Origin: Nautilus pompilius
Taxonomy: Eukaryota; Mollusca; Cephalopoda; Nautilida; Nautilidae
DNA: 64,000 bases
Assembly: GCA_018389105.1 (NCBI GenBank)
Contig: JACATO010000589.1
Span: forward strand, 422,001-486,000
Direction: 5' to 3'
Each line of letters begins with the position of its first letter. The stretch's first letter is position 1. The notes under the pieces are model-generated. The model saw nothing but the letters and a program-made list of their open reading frames with translations, was not told where the DNA came from and ran no database searches. Below are positions 1 through 64,000 of this stretch, piece after piece. The translations under genes and the position numbers were made by a program.

Positions 1-486
1 TGTGAAAGGGAAAAAAATCACTGGAAAACGACTTTGTTTACTAGTTTCTATTGATAAGGTGATGGGAAATTCCCAAACTAATCCTTCACTGTTTTATTTC
101 ATATAAATTCAAATAAAAATTTTATGTCACTTGAGATATTACTAAAATGAACTTGAGCAAATTTGTTATTGGTACTTTAAATAGTTTTATTATGCATTTT
201 TCATTATTTAAGCATCTCATTAAAAAATGTAGCTTTGTATGAAAAAGCTCATTTATACCGTGTCACCCCTCATACAGTTGCATGCAAGTGTAAGCGGAAT
301 TCTTCTCATTTATAGGATTTCAGAAATTGAAAAAACGACCCGGATACACTTGACCAAAATATTAAAAAATAAATGTAGCAGTTAAACATGGGATGTACAA
401 AAAGGTAATTGTTAGTAAGATAAAGTAAAACAAAAGATGATTGTGTTCTGATTTGTTTTTATGTATAAATGAGCACATAAGGTTAT

Positions 487-1750
487 TCAGGTAACTAAAT
501 CTAAATCACTCAATGTCATCTAGTAAATCATCATTGTCCCTTTCTTCACCACCATCATTAGAGTGATCATCTCCATCTTCCTCATTGTCACTTTGATCCA
601 ATTGCTCATCATCGTTGATCTCCTTCATTTCTTGAAGACACTCATCGACTTCTGCAATAATGTCATCTGGTATGCAGTGGCTTTTAATAGTTTCATGCAA
701 ATACAAATGTAAACTTTCAAGTTCATCCTTGTGTTTGATATATCCGTTTTGTTTGAATCTGCACATTATTATCTCTTCAGTTGTGACTTCCTTCCACACT
801 GAATCAGCCCACTGAGTCACCATCTCATAGGAAGCTCATTTTCTCTTCCCTGTGTGAGTAAACTCTTTTTTCCCATCATCAAGCCATTGATTCCAACGAT
901 CCTGCATTGCATTCTTGAACGGTTTATTGATGTATGTATTGAGGAATTGCAGCAAAGATGTCAATCCTGAGGGAATTAGCTTGGTATCGACATGATGTTT
1001 CTTCATGGTAGCATCCAGCGCATCGCTTTTGTGAGACATAGCAGAATCCATTATGAGCAATGAAGACTGTTGAAAAATACCCCTGACCATCTTGATATGA
1101 TTTTTGGTACATTTGGAGCATTCTTTAGATTCTTAAATATCAACATTGGAGGCAATCAGAATGCTTTCATTTGTTTTCAACCCACTGCACACCTGCAGTC
1201 AATACTGCTGTATAATGTAACTTTTCATACCCGTTAGATTTCTGTCGCACTGATTTCACACCTTTAAAGTCATATGTATGGGAGGTTGGCAGATCAAAAT
1301 AGCATGAGGTTTCATCCATGTTCCTATAGTCCCCATAATTTAAACTTTTCATGTCATCAAGAAACTACTCTCAAAACTCATGGGCATTATCAGGTACCTT
1401 TTGTCCACCACTGCTAGCACAATGCTTAACAGGTTGATTTCTATGCAGAAACTATGTTAGGTAACCTTGGAAGGCAACAAATTGTCGACCTTGCTGTCCA
1501 GGGTACAACTTTGCAAATAGAGTACGTGCTTTTCTACAAATCAGTTTTCCGCTCATATTTTTGTCCTTTTCCCTCTTCTCTTGTATGTATATGTATATAT
1601 ATGAGTTCTGTGTCAAAAAGTGGGTACTTGGAAGCTCTGTTATGTATTCTGATTCAAACTCAGAAGTTGATATCCTTTTGGTTGATGGCATGTCTGATTA
1701 CATCTTCTTTAACCCACTGCTGCAAATTCTGATGAGTGATCTAGGAAACT
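487..1750 (-). pseudogene. Pogo-family transposase remnant
   Basis: Pieces in the expected order on the - strand: a basic DNA-binding-side segment (1452-1691); YRNMDETSCYFDLP with the first catalytic Asp (1167-1352); LLIMDSAMSHKS with the second Asp and SGLTSLLQFLNTYINKPFK, the 'SGLTxxLQxxDvxxnKPFK' block of pogo transposases (836-1090); and the acidic tail rich in Asp/Glu (506-823). Several frame changes separate the pieces, so it is dead. The family usually encodes about 400-600 residues. Confidence 0.75.
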
Positions 1751-1982
1751 GAACAAAACGAACAGTATGAACCAATTTATAGAAGTAGAAGAACCTGTGT
1801 GGATGTATGTAATTGTGTATGTGTGAGTGTGTGTGTGTTTGTATATTTGGAGGGGATTCATATGTGCCTTCATTTTATGTACAGATGTTTGCTTTTAATT
1901 TACTAGTTTAAATCTTTTTCCTTTTATATCACAGTTTTCAAATTATTTTATTGTAAATTTTACTTGGTTTTAATTAGCTATA

Positions 1983-3291
1983 CGAGGTCTGTCGAAAAAG
2001 TATCTGACTATTTTTTCCCATGGGAAGTAATGACGTGAGGGAGGCAAAAGTGTGCATAGTGGAGCCGCATGCCTTCATGCGCATGCATGGTTTTTGGCAG
2101 GCTTGCTGAATGCATCAGTCGCTGTCTAGCAGCCAGCGTGTGAGGTGCTGTACTACTTAGTCGTTGCATTTTCATTTCGCTTGTGATGACGGAACGCGTG
2201 GAGCAATGATCTTGCATCAAGTTTTGCCAAAAGCTTGGAGATACCCAAGTGGAAACAATTCGCAAAATTCAACAGGCTTTTGGTGACAATGCCATGGGTG
2301 TTACCCAAATAAAAGAATGGTACAACAGGTTAAAAATGGCTGCATCGGTGGAGAGTGACCAGCATTCCGGGAGGCCATCAACAAGCCGCAATGCAGTTGT
2401 TATCGAGAATGTGTGGACCTTGATAATGGAGGATCATCGTTTGACGGTGCATGAAATTGGTGATGAGGTTGGGATCAGTAAAGATTCTGCACATGCTAAT
2501 TTTAAAGGAGGGTTTGGGCTTGCGCAGAGTGGCAGCGAAATTTGTGCCCAAGTTGCTTTCTCAGGAACAACAACAACTTCGTCTTGAGGTTGCGTAGGAG
2601 CTGCTAGATACTGCCAACAGGGAACCTGAGTTCCAGAATACTGTGGTAACTGGAGATAAGACATGGGTGTATGGGTATGACCCAGAAACCAAAGCTCAGT
2701 TATCACAGTGAAAGCACCCAACTTTGCCAAGGTTCAGAGAAAAATCAAGGTGATGCTGACTGTTTTCTTCAACTACTGAGGTGTTGTGCATCATGAATAC
2801 ACACCAGAAGGACAAACAGTTACAAAGGAGTACTATCAGGAAGTCTTCTGACGTCTTCGTGATGCAGTTTGGCACAAGAGACCGGATCTGTGGGCCTCGC
2901 AAAACTGGCAGCTGCATCATGACAACATCCCGGCTCATTCGTCGCAGCTGATCCAAAGTTTCTTGGCAAAGAAAGGCATTTCGCTCATTCACCAGGCTCC
3001 CTACTCTCCAGACATGGCTCCTTCTGACTTCTGGTTGTTCCCAAAAATGAAGATGCCACTGAAAGGCTCCTGCTTTGAGAGCTGAGAGGACATCATGCAG
3101 AATGCGACAGCAGAGCCAGGAGCCATTCCGGAAGAAGCATTCCAGGCATGCTTTGAACAGTGGAAGGATTGCTGGGCTAAGTGTGTGGAGGCACAAGGGG
3201 CCTACTTCAAAGGGGATTAGCAATTGAACCCCACCAAATACATAATTTTTTTTTCCCAGCCTAGGGTCGGATACATTTTCAACAGACCTCG
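1983..3291 (+). mobile_element. Mariner element (GVQW3-like, DD34D), copy 1
   Basis: 1309 bases with inverted ends CGAGGTCTGTCGAAAAAGTA and CGAGGTCTGTTGAAAATGTA, flanked by TA at 1981-1982 and 3292-3293. The + strand encodes a mariner transposase in broken frames: HTH part with NAMGVTQIKEWYNR, the block around TGDKTWVYGYDPET (first Asp), LHHDNIPAHS (second Asp) and YSPDMAPSDFWLF (third Asp). Thirty-four residues separate the last two, i.e. DD34D. It is interrupted by stops and a frame change near 2510-2600. It sits inside the pogo-type element, so it is the younger of the two. Confidence 0.9.
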
Positions 3292-3721
3292 TACATGCAC
3301 AAATGTATAAGCATGTATAGCTACATAGTTTTTAGACAATGTTAAATAAAGAAATAATAATAATATAATGCACAAGTTTACATACATTGAGTTATTTCAC
3401 CGTTTTACTGATATTCCTATCATTTTCTTTAAGAAGATTGAGTGTTTTTCCCTTAAAATTGAGGGAAAACTGCCTTCATGTATTATCCATCCTTTCATTG
3501 GTTTCAACTTTAACAACTTGGATTTGCTCAGTATTTCAGTATTTTTTCAACAAACATGGTTCAAATATCCAACCATTTGATTAGAATAGAAATATGAAAG
3601 AGCATTCATTGATTTGAGGAATGAAAAAAGTTTATCCAATCACTCGATAGACAATTGAAAAAACATGCAAACCAATTTTAAGGTAAAGTAAATACCTTTC
3701 CCTCTAAAAACATTATGGAAA

Positions 3722-4103
3722 ATGGCTCGATGCCAAGATTGTCATCCCTATTCATTTCAATTTGATAGTTTTGTTATTGGTTACCATATCTACCAACGTT
3801 CTTTGAATCCAATCATCGGTGAAAAACTAACAACCCAAAGAGAACCTGAAAATTCTGATGACAAATATGCACTGTATTTTGAGGAACAATCAAATCATTG
3901 GCCACATTCCTAGAGACATATCTAAAATATGTTCGTATATTCTTTGCATGAGCAGAACTTTGAATGCAACAGTTACGGTAAGAAGGGAGAATAAGCAGCG
4001 CAGTGGGCTAGAAGTTCCAATCACATGTTATGTGAAAGAACCCAGAAAGCCAATGGAAAATGTTCAAATGTTAATAAATGAATATTTTCAAAGATGTAAA
4101 TAG
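3722..4103 (+). pseudogene. HIRAN-domain frame inside the pogo element
   Basis: Two overlapping frames offset by one frameshift near 3880 give a HIRAN-like sequence: GYHIYQRSLNPIIGEKLTTQ, REPENSDDKYAL, then IIGHIPRDISKICSYIL, LNATVTVRRENKQ and GLEVPITCYVK. This matches the pattern 'G(Y/F)HVYxxxWxPxxGExLxxxREpxNxxDxyAVav...vvGHlPrxiSxxcslFL...i.c.VtGrR...glevPc' of stand-alone HIRAN proteins. HIRAN domains bind 3'-OH DNA ends in HLTF-type helicases. The present frame has no helicase part. It lies 85 bases from the element's right end, facing away from the transposase. Confidence 0.7.
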
Positions 4104-4254
4104 AAATAAGTCAAATCAAATGAAGTGTTTTCATTTTCTAAAAAAATTTTATCTGGATATAGTTGCAAGTGTGTGTGGGGTAACACGGTAAAAATAAAAC
4201 ACTTGTTATTAACATTGTAAGCATTTTATTTTTAAGCTATTTTTTTTTTTTAAG

Positions 4255-10545: not shown

Positions 10546-12787
10546 CAGCATGTCTTCCCTTTATGCAGGGGGATCTTACTGAAAAAGTGTGCATAAAGCA
10601 AATACTTTAAGTTTAGGGTTAGAGATGCATACTGTACTGCCCTGATTCCATATCTACTTAAACAATAACAAAATAACACAGTATAATACATATAAAGTAG
10701 TACTAAAAAAATATGTAAACTATTTTAGTTTATTTTATACCAACAGAAACATAGACTCACATGGATGATGTGGTGTTTGTTGCGATGGTCATTATTTACT
10801 TGTGGTGTGCAGAGAATGTGGCATGGCTATCTATGTTGTCATCACTGACTGTTGGTAATGTGACATGTGACATCAAAAGGTGATGGAAGGGGGCTGATAG
10901 ATGGTGGTTGAGTTGTGGTAGTGTTTCAGGTGTTGGGGCAGATTTTGATGGGCATGGAGATACAGGTTTTGGGGTTGTTGATGGGCTAGGAGATTGCTTG
11001 AAGAACTTCAAGATGCTAGACTGCTTGATGAATTGCTGCTTTTGGTTATAGATTTTCTTAGGGAGCAAGAGCAGCATTCAAGTTGTGTTTAAACTGCAGG
11101 TTTCTTTCCAGACTAGGGTTCTGAAGCTTGTGACAGTTGCTCAGAGAATGAAAAAATGTGGGCCAATTTATTCGATATTAAGTCCTTAACCTCCTGGACT
11201 ACCTTTTCATTGTCTTCTAGTTGATCATCATCTTCATTTGTTATTTCCTTGAAGTTATCAACACTTAACTTTTCTGTATTATGCGAATCAAGGAGTTCCA
11301 ACACATCTGCTTCCTCAAGGTCTGTAAAGCCAACTTCACATCCTAGTTGCTGAGAGGGTGGCTTCACTTCATTCAAAACAGCTTTAATGTTCTCAAAATC
11401 AATTATGATATTGTAAGCCTTCCACCAACCACCAGAGTGTCTGGCTTATTTGGTCCATCTGTGCCAACTAGCAGGGGATATCATTTTTCTGAGGTAATAA
11501 ACCTTGAATGTGGCTATCACCCCCTGGTCTAGAAGCTGTAGCAATGAGGTGGTGTTAGTGGGGCAAGAAGAGAACATTGACATTGACAGTAGATGTACAT
11601 CAGGTGTGGGGTGTTCTGAGATATTAACTAGGACAAGAAAAAGCTTGAACACAAGGTTAAACTTCCTGCAGTAGCATTTAGCATCCACAATAAAATGATT
11701 TATGAATCAATTTTTACAAATCTGACCAGTCATCCAAGTCTTCTTATTATAAGCCCAGTATTTGGGTAACAGGTTCTTACAGTGTTTACTGAGTGCATGT
11801 GAGTTCATGTAGTGGTACACACAGAACATCTTGTAGTCCCCCATGGCATTGCCATGCAGTAGTAGTGCCAGCTTATCCTTGGCTACTTTTAATCCAGATG
11901 CCACTCATTGCTGATGTAGGTTCTTTTGGGCATCTGTTTCCAGGACAACCCAGTCTTGTCTGCATTAAACACTTGTCTTGGGTTGTAACCTTCTTCGATC
12001 AAAATTTTTGGCTCATCCGGACTCTTGGCAACAATCTTGTGGTTGGCACTAACTGATGATCCACAGATCTTCATGTATGGAGCTTTTTAGCTGCATAGAA
12101 ATCTATCGAACCACTCCTTACTTGCATTAAATGGCTCTTGTGTTTCTCCTGTAAGCTGGTTGTAATTCTGCTAAGTCTTACTCCATACCCATGAGTTTCT
12201 GAGTCATCTTTCACTGATTCTGGTTTTCTATCTAGAATTTAAACATCTTATCCAATGTTGGATTCCTTATTCTGGTAGTTATTTTTGCCAAAAGAGATGT
12301 TGAAGTACTCACAGTACTTCTAATCTTCTTGGCATTCTTTTATTATCTGTATGGTTGACTTGCCAAGATTAAAGGTTCGTCTGACTGCTGAAGGCCCTTT
12401 ACCACCATCCAAACATTTTAAAATGTCCAGTTTTACCTCTAAAATTAGTGCAGTTTTCTTTATTTTCATATTAGGAGGGGTATAATTATTGGAAAAATGC
12501 TTCTGAGCACTACAATGGACAATGCAAGACTGAGCAAGTGTGAAAGCTTATTTTCATTACACATAGCTTGTCATCCATTGCTTTACCATCCAAACTGTGT
12601 GCATGTCAAGGGGCTCTCTGATTGACTTCTCCAGTTTTTGGAGAAATTTTGTTGCTCTGGTGTTAATTAACTTCCTGAGTAGTGCCTTGCACATGATGTC
12701 ACTCTTCACCTGATCACATAATAGCTAATTTTTTTCACATATAGCAATATCACATATGATGATATTGCATAAAGAGTGGATTTACTA
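10546..12787 (-). mobile_element. Tigger element, copy A
   Basis: Ends CAGCATGTCTTCCCTTTATG and, read from the right, TAGTAAATCCACTCTTTATG, next to TA at 10544-10545 and 12788-12789. They resemble the Tigger end consensus CAGTAATCCCTC.CTTTATGC. The - strand carries Tigger transposase pieces: QVFNADKTGLSWKQMPKRTY (first catalytic Asp, 11889-12074), KDKLALLLHGNAMGDYK (11707-11904), then TTSLLQLLDQGVIATFKVYY (third Asp, 11446-11688) and the acidic tail (11113-11376). Frames are broken. It lies in the 6.1-kb SYCP3 intron. Confidence 0.85.
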
Positions 12788-36990: not shown

Positions 36991-37270
36991 TATGGTACTT
37001 TTTCAGGCTTAAAGAGAAAACTAGTACTAAATACATTAGATGTTTGAATTGTGTTTACAGTTAAGGAGTGAGTGCATGTTTTTTTCACAGCAAGGTAAAA
37101 CTATCTGAACTGTTGAGCATTACTATAACTATTTATTGAACAAAAGATAAAAAATAATGTTATTTGTATTTGACGGAAATTATTTTGGTCATGTGTGAGA
37201 CATAAATGGTTCACAACTAAAGTATTACTGTAAGAAAACAAAAGTTTAGTTACTTTCAGAAAATCCTATA

Positions 37271-38920
37271 CAGTCATACCTCATTTTCAACTTTGTTGGT
37301 TTTTTGTTAATAATATTAGGAAAAAATAAGTCAACTAATGTCATGTCAGTCAGCAAACATATTAAAAACCCATAAAAATTTTTAAATCACATAAAAATAA
37401 ATGTTAAAATAATTTATAAGCTTAAAATTTTTTTAAATATTGTTTACATGACATTTGGTACCTATAGTTCCAGCGTTTGCTGTGTGGTGGCGCTGTAGTT
37501 CTTGTCAGCTGATTCAAACTTGTGCATGTATTTGCAGTATCTCATTTGCATTGAATTTGTGGCTTTATTTGTACCCATGGCTCCTACTGATAGTCCTAAT
37601 GCTGGTGATACATCATTGGAAGATAAGCTGGCTATTGGTGAAAAGGTCGTGCTTTTAGCTTGAATCAGACGACAGTTTATGATAAGGCACGGATTTTAGC
37701 CCATGTGAAAGATGATGTTCCAGCGATGAAGAACACCGTCATCAACAAGAAAAGGGAACATCAGTTTTCTCTTTGGATTGAACAGCAGACTCATCAGCAT
37801 ATTCCCAAGTCAGCTGTTGATTCAGGAGAAAGTGTTATCTTTGTTTAAAGACCTCAAGAAGTTTCCTAACAAGAAAGACGCAGAATTCAAGGTAAGTTCA
37901 GGATGGTTTTAGCTGCATCGGAATTCCCAGTGACTTTGGCGAAGATTATTGAGAATGGATATTCAATGTGGATGAGACTGCCAGATCATTCATTCATAGC
38001 CAAGGAGAAGGCCGCAAAAGGCCGTTTGACACTTCTGTTGAGAGGCAATTTGCTGCTGGTGTATCATGCCCAGAATCCTCAAGCGCTGAAGAACATCCCC
38101 AAGGCCTCTCTCCCAGTTGTACGGATGGCAAACCAAAAGGCTTGGGCAATTTTTGAGGATTGGTTCTTCAACCACTTTGTACCAGCAGTGGAGAAGTATT
38201 GTAAGGAGAGGGGCATCCCGTTCAAGATCCTCATTTTAGACAACGCTCCTGGTTCATCTGAACATCACCATCATTTACCCTCCCCAACAACGCCTCTCTT
38301 GCAGCCGATAGACCAGGAGATCATCAACATCTTCAAACGCTGCTACCTTAGGCGTATGCTTAGTCAGGTTGTAGCTGCAATGGAACTGGATGACAAGTCA
38401 CACTCCGTGACTTTGGAAGGGATACGAAATCTACAAGAACCGTGACACATCACCAGAATGCAGCAGGACTTTGCGCACACCAAGAAAGTGCTTGCAATTT
38501 TCGAGGAGATGGATCTCAATGCTAAACTATGGGGGCAGTCCACAATGCTACATGAAAAGATCAAAACTATTCAGGGCACTCTTGACCAGTTCTTGCAGCA
38601 CACAAAAAACCAACAGGAAGAACTTGAATCGTCAGCTGGAGAGCTTCAGACGTCAACGTAGTCTCATCTTTTTCCTCTAACCACCACCTCTGGCTTATCA
38701 AGCACATCGATATCACCCATCAGGTAAATTTTTTTTGTTTTTTCTTTACATTAGCATCAATTAAAATGCGTAAATTTGATAATTCAACATTTTTACATTC
38801 TTTTTAATAATGTTATTAGCGACATTATGGGGTTATTTATAGGAGATCTAGGCCGTTTTTTTAGAGTTTATTCGACTTAAGTCTTGGAACAAATTAATGA
38901 CGTAAGGCGAGGTATGACTG
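37271..38920 (+). mobile_element. Tigger element, copy B
   Basis: Ends CAGTCATACCTCATTTTCAA and, inverted from the right, CAGTCATACCTCGCCTTACG, flanked by TA (37269-37270, 38921-38922). These are Tigger1-type ends. The + strand carries a Tigger/CENP-B-like transposase: MAPTDSPNAG start near 37577, the HTH part to 37900, then a good frame at 37903-38445 with KGRLTLLLRGN, KILILDNAPG (second Asp) and SPTTPLLQPIDQEIINIFKR (third Asp, family motif 'TsllQPlDqgvi..fK'), and a tail to 38661. A few frame breaks make it inactive; the first catalytic Asp block is damaged. Confidence 0.9.
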
Positions 38921-39209
38921 TATACTACTAATGTTTATATTTATAAAATTCAGAAGTTTTTAAAAGTTTCTGTAAGCACTTTGATCTTTCCAAGTCAATT
39001 ATTATTGACATTAGACAACAACAAAAATATTTTCTCTGTAGTGATCAAGAGATATGAAAGATAATCTGCTCATGTGACAGTAACTAAGAATAAATTGAGG
39101 AGATTTTAAAATGTGATTTGTGAGAAATGACCTACTTTGTATTTTAGTTTTTCAGAATCTAAAACTCAGGCCAGTTAACATTATTATATATATACCCTAA
39201 TCTAAACTA

Positions 39210-41268
39210 TTAGTTTGTCATGAAAGTTTTGTCGGTTTTTATACTATGTTAATATAGGGTTAATTTTTTGCTTGCTTGTGAAGGTGTATGAGGTCCGTCG
39301 AAAAAGTATCCGACTTTTTTTCTTCAGTGGGGAGTAATGATGTTAGGGAGGCAAAAGTGTGCATAGTGGAGCCGCATGCCTTTATGCGCGTTTTTTGGCG
39401 GACTTGCAGGATGCGTCAGTTGCTGTACTAAAAAGCTTGGAGATACCCAAGCGGAAACAATTCAAAAAATTCAACAGGCTTTTGGTGACAATGCCATGGG
39501 TGTTACCCAAATAAAAGAATGGTACAACAGGATCAGAGATGGCTGCACACCGGTGGAGAGTGACCAGCATTCCGGGAGGTCGTCAACAAGCCACATTGCA
39601 GTTATCAAGAAAGTGCGGACCTTGATAATGGAGGATCGTTGTTTGAAGGTGTGGGAAATTGGTGACGAGACTGGGATCAATAAAGATTCTGAACATGCAA
39701 TTTTAAAGGAGGATTTGGGCTTGCGCTGTGCCCAAGCTGCTTTCTCAGGAACAACAACAAAGGACGTGCTGGATACTGCCAACAGGGATCCAGAGTTCCA
39801 GAATACCATGATAACTGGAGATGAGATGTGATGTACGGTTACGACCCGGAAACACCCAACGTCACCAAGTCAAAAAAAGCATGTCAAATAAAGGTGATGC
39901 TGACTGTTTCTTTGATTACTGAGGTGTTGTGCATCATGAATATGCACCAGGAAGTCCTCCGACATCTTCGTGATGCAGTTTGGCGCAAGAGACCGGTTCT
40001 GTGGGCCTCGCAAAACTGGCAGCTGCATCATGACAACGTCCCGGCTCATTCGTCACAGCTGATCCAAGGTTTCTTGGCAAAGAAAGGCATTTCGCTCATT
40101 CGCCAGGCTCCATACATTGCTCCTGACTTCTGGTTGTTCTCAAAAATGAAGATGCCACTGAAAGGCTCCTGCTTTGAGAGCCAAGAGCCATTCCAGACAT
40201 GCTTCGAACAGTGGAAGCTTCGAAGGGGATTAGCAATTGAACCCCACCAAGTATGTAATTTTTTTCCCAGCCCTCATATGTAGATAAGTTATATACCGTT
40301 TTGTAGTGTCTGGTTTTGCATACATTGTGCCCACTTTGCTTCACGAGTTCAAACTAAGCCACAGAGTGAGGCAACTTGTAACAGTAAGAAAGCATGGGGC
40401 GAGGACAAAGTGAATGAGTACAACAATGGTTCACAAAGTTTTGATCAGGAGACGTTAGAATCGAAGATAAGGAATGTAGCAGACATCCTTCCAGCTGTGA
40501 TGACAACCATCTGAGAGCCTCAGTTGAAGCAAATCCAAGAAAAACGTTGCGAGAAATCTCTGGAGAGCTTGATGTAAGCACTGCAACGTGAAAAGGCTTG
40601 ACAAGTGGGTGCCTCATGAGTTGAATGAACAACAATAAAATCGTTGATTGAAGATCTGCTCTTCATTTGTCATAAGAAACAAAAACTACCCATTTCTTGA
40701 CATGGATCCTTTACGACAGTTGGAAATGATCGGTGTCTTGACAGAGACAAGACATTAACCACATTCCAAAACCCAGCCTCCACCCAAAGAAATTCATGGT
40801 CACTGTCTGGTGGACTGCCACTGGTGTCATCCACTATAACTTCTTGCAACCGGGAGAAACCATCATAGCTGAAAGATACTGTCATGAATTAAATGTTGTT
40901 CATCGGTGAATCGAAGTGAACCAATCCTGTTCCACGACAGTGCTCGTTCTGATGTTGCAAAAGTGACTCTTCAGAAACTGAACACATTGGGATACGAAGT
41001 TCCCCTCACCCAGCCTATTCACCAGACCTTTCTCCCACAGGTCACCACCTCGACAGCTTCCTCTGTATGAAATCATCCTCCAACCAAGAAGCAATTCAAA
41101 CTGCCTTCCATCAGTTTATCGACTACAGAAATCCAGATTTGTTTCAAAATGGGATAAATACGCTTGTAACTCATTGGCAGAAGTGTATTGATTGTAATGG
41201 AACCTTCAGCAATATGAAATTTCATTGTTGTGGTAAAAAATACTGACAAAACTTTTGTAACAACCTAA
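39210..41268 (+). mobile_element. SETMAR/Hsmar1-like mariner, copy 1, with nested mariner
   Basis: Ends TTAGTTTGTCATGAAAGTTT and, inverted, TTAGGTTGTTACAAAAGTTT. Removing the inserted mariner at 39289-40276 leaves about 1.07 kb, a normal mariner size. The + strand shows Hsmar1-type transposase pieces: RLDKWVPHELNEQQ (40590-40636), SFVIRNKN, the block around FQNPASTQRNSWSLSGGLP (40760-40820), ILFHDSARSDVAKVTLQKLN (second Asp, 40925-40985) and NTLVTHWQKCIDCNGT (41155-41205). Frames are broken and the first catalytic region is shortened. A second copy lies at 53554-54767. Confidence 0.88.
39289..40276 (+). mobile_element. Mariner element (GVQW3-like), copy 2, nested
   Basis: Begins TGAGGTCCGTCGAAAAAGTA, as copy 1 at 1983-3291, and ends CCCTCA; TA flanks it (39287-39288, 40277-40278). 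Most of the right inverted end is deleted, and internal deletions shorten it to 988 bases from 1309. The + strand transposase is partly open: FGDNAMGVTQIKEWYNRI (39376-39831), then LHHDNVPAHSSQLIQGFLAK with the second Asp (39828-40283). It interrupts the SETMAR-like mariner within a sequence that reads on uninterrupted in the other copy of that element. Confidence 0.9.
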
Positions 41269-53553: not shown

Positions 53554-54767
53554 TTAGGTTTGCTGAACGTGAAGCTTATTAATCAAAGTAAGTTCCATTA
53601 CAATGAATACATTTATGCCAATGAGTTACAAGCACATTTATACCATTTTGAAACAAATCTGGATTTCTGGAGTCGATAAACTGTTGGAAGGCAGTTTCAA
53701 TTGCTGCTTGATTGGAGAAGGATTTCATATGGAGGAAGCTGTCGAGGTGGTGGCCTGTGGGAGAAAGGTCTGGTGAATAGGCTGGGTGAGGGGAACTTCG
53801 TATCCCAATGTGTTCAGTTTCTGAAGAGTCACTTTTGCAACATCAGAATGAGCACTGTTGTGAAGCAGGATTGGGTCTCTTTGATTCACCAATGCCAGCG
53901 GTCGTTGGGAGAGTTTCTGATGAACAACATTAAATTCACAACAGTACCTTTCAGCTGTGATGGTTTTGCCAGGTTGCAAGAAGTTATAGTGAGTGACACC
54001 AGTGGCAGTCCACCAGACAGTGACCATGAATTTCTTTGGGTGGAGGCTGGGTTTTGGAATGTGGTTGATGTCTTGTCTCTGTCAAGACACCGATCATTTG
54101 CAACTGTTGTAAAGGATCCATTTTTCATCACACATAATGATTCAGTCAAGAAATGGGTCGTTTTTGTTTCTTATGACAAATGAAGAGCAGATCTCCAATC
54201 AACGATTTTGTTGTTGTTCATTCAACTCGTGAGGCACCCACTTGTCAAGTCATTTCACCTTGATGATTGTATCAAGATGTCAGGAAACAGTTGCCGTGCT
54301 TACATCAAACTCTCCAGAGATTTCTCGCACAGTTTTTCTTGGATCGGCTTCAACTGAGGCTTTCAGACGGTCGTCATCACAGCTGGATAGACGTCTGCTA
54401 TCTTCCTTATCTTCAAGACTCACATCTTCTGATTGAAACTTTGTAAACCATTATGGTACTGTGCACCCATTTGCTGTGTTCTCACCCCATCCTTGCTTAA
54501 TTTTACGAGTTGCCTCGCTTGCTTTGTGGCCCAGTTGAAACTCATGAAGTAAAATGGCACAAAAACTTTTCTATCCATGCTTCACTCAGAACCCTAGAAC
54601 AAATATCCATTTTACGATTTTTAAAAAGGTAGGTTTAGTATAATGTCTGCCAAAGCACACGCTGCAAAACAATATGTAACTTATCTACACACCTTCACAT
54701 GCATGCAAAAAAATGAACCCCAAATTAACATAGTATAAAAAGCAACAAAACTTTTGTAACGACCTAA
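53554..54767 (-). mobile_element. SETMAR/Hsmar1-like mariner, copy 2
   Basis: 1214 bases flanked by TA (53552-53553, 54768-54769). The transposase 5' end is at the right (inverted end TTAGGTCGTTACAAAAGTTT); the left end keeps only TTAGGTT. On the - strand: MDRKVFVPFYFMSFNWATKQ at about 54585-54520, KWVPHELNEQQQN, SFVIRNKND, then TVWWTATGVTHYNFLQPGKT with KTITAERYCCEFNVVHQKLS and RDPILLHNSAHSDVAKVTLQ (53725-54027). The second catalytic Asp reads Asn here (LHNSA for LHDNA) and frames are broken, so it is dead. Uninterrupted by the nested mariner present in copy 1. Confidence 0.9.
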
Positions 54768-62279: not shown

Positions 62280-64000
62280 GGGCAATTAGCAGGAAATATA
62301 TATGTATATCTTTGATAAAACATTTAACACTTCTGAATCAAATATGAAAGATTAAACAGTAAAAAAAAAGTCAAAATCAAGCATTGACATTTCCCAAAAT
62401 GAACTAAGTCTCTAAAAATTAAAGTAGCACTTGTATTTGTTTGGTTCTTGTGGATAGTAAACATTCTTCTGTCTTTGGAATTTCTCCAATGGAGAAAAGC
62501 AGCAGAAAAGTCAAATTGACCAATGGGTCCTCCCTCCAGTTTAACCAAGAGCAGATCATCTAGTTTTGAGCTACAGTAGATAGCCTGTTGTGAGATGATG
62601 TTTTCACCAGATTTTGAGCACTGAACCCTCTCTCTCTGACTGAGGTGTGGATCGGAGCACTCAAAGCTAGAGAGGTAAGTTTCAGCAAATTGGGCACATC
62701 TTCCTTATGATATTGGTTGATGAGGCTCCACAGATCCGTCATCTTACCTCTGGGAAAACCAGCATTGATCACTAAAGACTTGAGAAGAGCCCACTCCTTT
62801 CTGGTTGCAGCTGAATTATTATTTTTTTTTTTGTTTTGACATTTATGATTTTCCAATCAGTATTCCCAGCTTGTCATTTCCCCACGTCTCCAGGTCAGTC
62901 TGTGAGAGGAATGATAACAGTCTAAGTCCCAATGCCCCATAAGCATATATGATGTTACTGCCATCTGCTGGGAATCTCTGGTCAAGTTTCTCAAGTAAGC
63001 CATCCACAAAATTTTCTTTGATGCTATCAATATTTTGTTTTCCTTTGACAAAATGAGTTTCCTTGTAAACAAGTTTTCCTCCAATAACTTTCAGATGATC
63101 ATTTTGAAGTTTGTGAAGATAACTGTGATCATCCACACCAGCTCTTATTTTCTGAAGAGCTGATCTACAGGTTGTGACTGAAGTTTCTACCAGGCTGACA
63201 TCTAGATCTATTTTGATACAAATGGCAATATGTCCATGAGCATGTATGTAGATGCAATAAAATCATACTGGACCAACTTGTTGCCATATCCTTTAGATTT
63301 AGCATCCTTATCTGTGGTAAAAAAAGTGATAAGGGAGTCCAGGCACTGATAGACTGTGTTGACAGCTAAATAGACTGACAGCCATCTCACCTCATGCACT
63401 TCTTTCACTTTGAGCTTAGGCTCATTTAGCATCTCCTGGATGGATGCAAGCTTAGTTGTCCTGTTAGCAGATGCCTTAAAAAAAATAAATATACCAGTCA
63501 GTGTTGTTTGGTAGTCTACCAGATAGGGCACAGAATCTGCTGCTTGTGATGTGACCAGAGCTAGTTTGTGGGCAAGACAATGATAGTTTATCAGCATTGG
63601 ATTATTTCTAAGCATGTAACCAGTCAAGCTCTCTCCTATTCCAGTCATCATCTTGGCCCCATCAGTTCCAAATCCCATAACTTTAGTGAGTGGAATTTGC
63701 TGTTCATAAAGAATTTCATTCAACTTGTCATGTGTGGCCTTACCAGTTGCACATTTCACTTCTGGGTTGCACAAAAATACAGTACTTGGTTCAAAAGTGT
63801 CTGGATCTATAATTCTGGCATAAACTACGAGTTTTTTTTCTCACTGATATGTCAGTGCTCTAATCACACAGGACACTGAGGACTGGTGATTTTATGAGCC
63901 TGTCATTGATGTTTTCCCTAATGATTGCTGCTATGGATTCTAACATCTCGGGAGCTGTTCTGTCAGAACTGTAGTTTACATTTTTGGCTGTTTTCAAGCC
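62280..64000 (-). mobile_element. hAT element (ZNF862-like transposase), runs off the window
   Basis: On the - strand a hAT transposase is almost continuous from 64000 to about 62430. A stretch from the right edge reads SSDRTAPEMLESIAAIIREN then ISVRKKLVVYARIIDPDTFE; the frame 63208-63774 has KVMGFGTDGAKMMTGIGESL and NYHCLAHKLALVTSQAADSV (catalytic region) and VHEVRWLSVYLAVNTVYQCL; 62843-63136 has HKLQNDHLKVIGGKL; 62560-62856 has KLTSLALSAPIHTSVRERGF and SAQNLVKTSSHNRL, the hAT dimerisation block. One TAG replaces the expected Glu codon in the C-D-E-S-T-D motif at about 63860, and there are two or three further interruptions. The 5' part lies outside. It is the best preserved transposase here. 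Confidence 0.85.

What the first reader, a model, noticed from the sequence alone, without database searches (positions are those of the whole stretch)
258..4188. A pogo-type transposon that carries a HIRAN-domain gene
Two TA-flanked inverted ends (CCGTGT[C/T]ACCCC) enclose both a pogo transposase remnant on the - strand and, facing the other way, a HIRAN-domain frame at the far end. HIRAN normally recognises DNA ends in HLTF-like remodelers and also occurs as lone proteins in TE-rich animals. Its place inside the ends suggests it is a cargo or accessory gene of the transposon, perhaps handling DNA ends during transposition or repair. I am not aware of a description of this pairing. The link is inferred from the ends; function is a guess.
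Basis: partly seen in the sequence, partly recalled or inferred. Interest (0 to 1): 0.75.

Follow-up and report, generated by a model that had tools for sequence, protein, structure and literature searches.

The report
Decayed pogo transposon carrying HIRAN gene
A broken, old animal jumping gene of the pogo type holds, between its two matching ends, a second small gene for a domain that in human cells grips DNA ends; this hints that some transposons may bring their own DNA-end-handling protein, but only one decayed copy could be examined.

Summary
TA-flanked inverted ends at 256-282 and 4164-4190 match at 23 of 27 bases; among 5,072 TA-anchored inverted sites in the window the next best reaches 15. 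Inside lie a pogo transposase relic on the minus strand (1697-506; DDE_1 E 1.7e-9) and, facing the other way, a 126-codon HIRAN frame (3722-4103; one frameshift, no in-frame stop; E 5.3e-7 when read through, above Pfam's cut-off). Repeats around the HIRAN frame do not exceed shuffles, so HIRAN is most simply part of the transposon. Short ends, TA target and a DD35N triad (hand count) fit the Passer group of pogo. A role at DNA ends is a guess; HLTF's two stacking tyrosines are not conserved. Two other pogo relics in the window show no detected HIRAN. A new variant of a known kind resting on one dead copy.

The parts
256..4190 (.). whole element with its TA duplication (body 258-4188)
   Evidence: inverted ends with TA on both sides
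256..282 (+). left terminal inverted repeat, TA included
   Evidence: 23 of 27 bases match the right end
4164..4190 (-). right terminal inverted repeat, TA included
   Evidence: 23 of 27 bases match the left end; next best of 5,072 TA-anchored sites is 15
506..1697 (-). pogo (Passer-like) transposase relic, with in-frame stops and frame changes
   Evidence: DDE_1 E 1.7e-9 in 839-1132; HTH_Tnp_Tc5 E 0.032, below cut-off, in 1455-1697; frames
1981..3293 (+). younger mariner inserted between the two genes, with TA duplication
   Evidence: 28-base inverted ends, 89%; HTH_48 E 1.2e-5; second copy elsewhere in the window
3722..4103 (+). HIRAN gene, ATG to stop, about 126 codons with one frameshift
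   Evidence: HIRAN PF08797 E 5.3e-7 read through; half frame E 0.011; read-through

Best explanation
This is a dead copy of a two-gene DNA transposon of the pogo superfamily, closest in form to Passer. When it inserted at a TA it carried a transposase gene and, pointing the other way, a complete small gene for a lone HIRAN protein that stops 60 bases before the right terminal repeat. Both genes then decayed, and a mariner inserted between them. Shown: the ends, the gene order, the mariner, the decay. Inferred: that HIRAN was a standing accessory gene of this transposon family and not a passenger of one copy. Inferred with low confidence: the HIRAN protein bound the 3' ends that the transposase exposes at excision and competed there with the host remodeler HLTF, so that the host did not strip or resect the transposition complex too early.
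For: Ends far beyond chance. Transposase and HIRAN both inside them. HIRAN frame complete from ATG to stop, with one frameshift. No inverted or direct repeats around the HIRAN frame beyond shuffles, so no sign of a separate insertion. Hand count: at least 6 disablements in about 1,190 bases of transposase against 1 in 382 of HIRAN, which is compatible with equal age. For the mechanism only an analogy: the isolated HLTF HIRAN part inhibits removal of Cas9 by HLTF and inhibits end resection in a dominant-negative manner (PMC11237066, passages).
Against: One copy only. No host genome. Two other pogo-type relics in the window have no HIRAN match, though they are of another type. By the alignment, HLTF Y72 and Y93, which stack on DNA (PMC4666394, one passage), are I and D here, and N90 is E (N91 is kept); residue numbers were placed by hand. 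The nested-insertion test covered only 3294-3722 against 4103-4163, not the stretch left of the mariner. Fold model of low confidence (mean pLDDT 53.6).
Confidence: 0.55

Rival explanations
1. One-off capture: this copy, or a small subfamily, picked up a HIRAN gene, for instance by imprecise gap repair after excision; HIRAN has no part in transposition.
For: Only one copy is known; other pogo relics in the window lack a detected HIRAN; published Passer elements have one ORF (passages).
Against: The captured piece is a whole intronless reading frame from ATG to stop placed 60 bases from the end, not a fragment of a larger gene.
Confidence: 0.28
2. Nested insertion: a separate HIRAN-bearing element or a retrocopy landed inside a pogo transposon.
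For: A second, undisputed nested element (the mariner) lies in the same transposon; there is a 7-base A run 37 bases after the stop.
Against: Best inverted repeat around the HIRAN frame lies within the range of 20 resampled controls at lengths 14, 20 and 27; the longest direct repeat, 9 bases, is reached by 41 of 100.
Confidence: 0.12
3. If HIRAN is an accessory gene: it serves as a recruiter of host repair, or as a regulator that binds the transposon ends, not as a competitor of HLTF.
For: HIRAN is described as a domain that directs remodelers and repair enzymes to DNA ends (passages).
Against: No partner domain is present in the 126-codon frame (one family only).
Confidence: 0.35
4. The ends are a chance pair and the two genes are unrelated neighbours.
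For: None found.
Against: 0 of 100 shuffles hold the pair; 23 of 27 against a next best of 15 among 5,072 sites.
Confidence: 0.01

Closest known systems
Passer family of the pogo superfamily (PMC7386202 and PMC9976928, passages)
   Different: a second, divergent gene of the HIRAN family inside the ends; third catalytic residue reads N in this fossil
HIRAN domain of HLTF (PF08797; PMC4666394 and PMC11237066, passages)
   Same: Pfam match over profile positions 5-92 of 96; HLTF HIRAN chains are the PDB matches with a stretch that passes on its own and lead the fold search, weakly
   Different: a lone protein without ATPase or RING; two stacking tyrosines and one asparagine of HLTF replaced
HIRAN protein of European chub iridovirus (PMC6563503, passages)
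   Same: a HIRAN protein encoded by a mobile or infectious entity of animals
   Different: a virus, not a transposon; sequences not compared here
Ciliate Tec elements (PMC7325037, passages)
   Same: Tc1/mariner-group transposon with genes beyond the transposase, one in the opposite direction
   Different: the extra gene is a site-specific recombinase, not HIRAN

Membership tests
pogo superfamily, Passer group | TA target site duplication | tested here: met
   TA at 256-257 and 4189-4190
pogo superfamily, Passer group | terminal inverted repeats shorter than 30 bases | tested here: met
   27 bases counting TA, 23 matching; similarity drops after that
pogo superfamily, Passer group | DDE_1 transposase with Tc5-type DNA-binding domain | tested here: met
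   DDE_1 E 1.7e-9 passes the cut-off; HTH_Tnp_Tc5 E 0.032 does not
pogo superfamily, Passer group | catalytic triad DD35D | tested here: inconclusive
   spacing of 35 by hand count on the frame; third residue is N in this decayed copy
pogo superfamily, Passer group | a single ORF encoding 400-500 residues | tested here: not met
   a second gene lies inside the ends; the transposase region spans about 397 codons with a probable deletion. This feature is descriptive, so the copy is called Passer-like, not filed as a member
pogo superfamily, Passer group | placement in the Passer clade of a transposase tree | not tested
   no reference set of pogo transposases was at hand and the relic is broken
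HIRAN domain (PF08797) | profile score above the curated cut-off | tested here: met
   29.8 bits against 24.7, only when read through one frameshift; 15.9 bits for the downstream frame alone
HIRAN domain (PF08797) | HIRAN fold | tested here: inconclusive
   single-sequence model, mean pLDDT 53.6; ranks 1-9 of the PDB fold search are HLTF HIRAN, best E 0.033, TM 0.20, none at E 0.001 or better
HLTF-type HIRAN that binds 3' ends | residues of HLTF that contact DNA: Y72, Y93, N90, N91 | tested here: not met
   I, D, E and N at the aligned places (numbering by hand), so one of four kept
HLTF-type HIRAN that binds 3' ends | binding of 3'-OH DNA ends | not testable with these tools
   needs protein from an intact relative

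The most novel reading that the evidence does not exclude
A family of animal pogo transposons encodes its own HIRAN protein, which occupies the 3' ends made at excision, shuts out the host remodeler HLTF and so protects the transposition complex: a transposon-borne counter to host DNA-end processing, and a source of lone HIRAN genes in animals.
Probability: 0.12. Interest if true: 0.8.

Novelty: new variant of a known kind. Interest (0 to 1): 0.5.

Why it matters
Passer-type cut-and-paste transposons are described with a transposase gene alone (passages) and leave repair to the host. A second gene of a DNA-end-binding family inside the ends would suggest that some carry a helper or shield for that step, and would offer an origin for lone HIRAN proteins in animals. 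It is directly testable by counting copies in the host genome.

Tried and rejected
Chance ends: rejected. Nested element around the HIRAN frame: no repeats beyond resampled controls (first-order Markov resamples of the flanks, 20 and 100; region tested 3294-3722 against 4103-4163 only). Retrocopy: only a 7-base A run, no duplication beyond controls.

Other copies: host genome not held. Window: no second pair of these ends and no second HIRAN; the only other tblastn match of a HIRAN half is 22 residues at E 0.51 with a stop. IMG/VR, exact 14-base end, C form only: 89 stretches (80 listed), none with both end forms in inverted order 100-8,000 bases apart in the DNA fetched; so many single hits are expected by chance in a collection of that size (rough estimate, not computed in a call). 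Protein scans: IMG/VR with HIRAN (1 and 5 pattern stretches) and transposase (9 and 169), prokaryote genomes with HIRAN (4) and transposase (93); none confirmed by tblastn. Phage records by tblastn and plasmid records by blastn: no match. These collections hold little or no animal DNA, so the misses say nothing about the host.

HIRAN in PHROGs: one weak hit (E 0.035, unknown function); NCBIfam: 0 families for HIRAN and for the transposase fragment. PDB by sequence: the two best-ranked rows are leucine-rich-repeat receptors (E 1.6e-5 and 2.3e-4) with no stretch that passes on its own; HLTF HIRAN follows at E 0.071-0.097.

Literature: nine searches, seen as listings. 113 papers hold 'HIRAN domain' (40 listed), 6 also hold 'transposase', 7 'mobile element', 0 'Repbase'. 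From titles, starts of abstracts and passages of the papers opened, I saw no description of HIRAN in an animal transposon. Repbase itself, subscription papers and Iyer, Babu and Aravind 2006 (seen only as a citation) were not searched.

Full report
What is there. Bases 256-282 and 4164-4190 are inverted repeats, each with TA on its outer side. The 12-base core CCGTGTYACCCC, allowing one mismatch, occurs only at these two places in the window, and 0 of 100 shuffles hold two. Against all 5,072 TA-anchored inverted sites of the window, the left end matches the right one at 23 of 27 bases; the next best site reaches 15. These are the ends of one transposon, 3,931 bases between the TAs.

What lies inside. 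On the minus strand, 1697 to 506, is a pogo transposase relic: DDE_1 E 1.7e-9 for 839-1132 and a sub-threshold HTH_Tnp_Tc5 match, E 0.032, for 1455-1697; two further fragments gave no related family. Read by hand, it has at least four in-frame stops and two frame changes, a probable deletion, an acidic tail, and a catalytic triad spaced 35 residues as in DD35D whose third residue reads N. On the plus strand, 3722 to 4103, is a frame from ATG to stop with one frameshift and no in-frame stop. Its downstream half alone hits HIRAN at E 0.011 and its upstream half hits nothing; read through the frameshift it scores E 5.3e-7, above Pfam's cut-off, over profile positions 5-92 of 96. By sequence in the PDB the HLTF HIRAN chains are matched at E 0.071-0.097; two better-ranked leucine-rich-repeat receptors there have no stretch that passes on its own. 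A fold from this single sequence is of low confidence (mean pLDDT 53.6); the first nine rows of the fold search are HLTF HIRAN, but with E 0.033 at best and TM about 0.2.

A mariner with 28-base inverted ends (89%) sits at 1981-3293 between the two genes; its frame hits HTH_48. A second copy lies at about 39.3-40.3 kb, 87% identical over 1,004 aligned columns; blastn pieces of 29-863 bases give 79-93%. The mariner came after the pogo element and is itself diverged, so the pogo copy is older. Without the mariner the element is about 2.6 kb.

Is HIRAN really part of it? Lying inside the ends does not exclude a later nested insertion. The best inverted repeat between the two sides of the HIRAN frame lies within the range of 20 resampled controls at lengths 14, 20 and 27, and the longest direct repeat, 9 bases, is reached by 41 of 100. 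The test covers 3294-3722 against 4103-4163 only. The decay of the two genes is compatible with one age: 1 disablement in 382 bases against at least 6 in about 1,190 (hand count). The gene stops 60 bases before the right repeat. The simplest reading is one transposon with two divergent genes. Whether this is a family trait or one capture cannot be told from one copy.

The missing test. No whole genome is held for this window. Six protein scans, one exact-end scan and two similarity searches confirmed no relative, but those collections are viral, prokaryotic, phage and plasmid. Within the window two further pogo-type relics, at 37269-38922 and about 11.1-11.9 kb, have no HIRAN match; the first has other ends (TACAGTCATACCTC).

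How it may work. Transposases of this group cut at TA and leave free 3' ends (recalled). HLTF finds 3' ends through HIRAN and strips bound Cas9 from cut DNA, and its isolated HIRAN part inhibits removal and inhibits end resection in a dominant-negative manner (PMC11237066, abstract and passages; that paper says nothing of transposons in its text). A lone HIRAN protein made by a transposon could do the same at excision. This is inference by analogy. Against it, two tyrosines that stack on the DNA in HLTF (PMC4666394, one passage) are I and D here and N90 is E; the placing rests on the alignment and hand numbering. I hold 'HIRAN gene inside a pogo-type transposon' at about 0.85, the standing accessory-gene reading at about 0.55, and the HLTF-competition step at about 0.12.

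What is known. Intact Passer elements are 1.6-4.0 kb with one ORF of 400-500 residues, TA targets, mostly repeats under 30 bases, and DD35D (PMC9976928, passages). Pogo elements have one or two ORFs, described as encoding transposases (PMC7386202, passages). A survey of pogo-like elements speaks of additional ORFs in general terms and of a recombinase in ciliate Tec elements (PMC7325037, passages). A fish iridovirus carries a HIRAN protein (PMC6563503, passages). A study of transposon-derived transcription factors does not mention HIRAN (PMC10027918, passages). In nine searches, mostly seen as capped listings, I saw no description of HIRAN in an animal transposon; Repbase itself was not searched.

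Verdict. A new variant of a known kind, resting on one dead copy.

Noticed in passing
window 37269-38922: A Tigger-like pogo element on the plus strand (DDE_1 E 1.9e-14) with TA-flanked ends TACAGTCATACCTC and no HIRAN match.
   Followed up: partly
window 11113-11889: Another Tigger-like relic on the minus strand (tblastn E 8.4e-18 to the element at 37.9 kb over 11476-11889, one stop inside); the frame at 11113-11445 looks like its C-terminal part (recalled resemblance).
   Followed up: no
window 39287-40272: Second copy of the mariner that sits inside the pogo element; 87% identical over 1,004 aligned columns.
   Followed up: partly
window 54298-54537: A more distant Mos1-type mariner relic on the minus strand (27% identity, E 1.5e-4); frames at 53725-54081 and near 40.4-41.2 kb resemble each other and look like parts of the same family (by eye).
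   Followed up: no
window 62843-63840: Minus-strand frames that look like a hAT-type transposase relic (recalled resemblance; Pfam gave no such match for 63208-63840).
   Followed up: no
whole window: G+C 33.6% and CpG observed/expected 0.25: strong CpG loss, as in a methylated animal genome; no tRNA and no Rfam match; the species was not identified.
   Followed up: no
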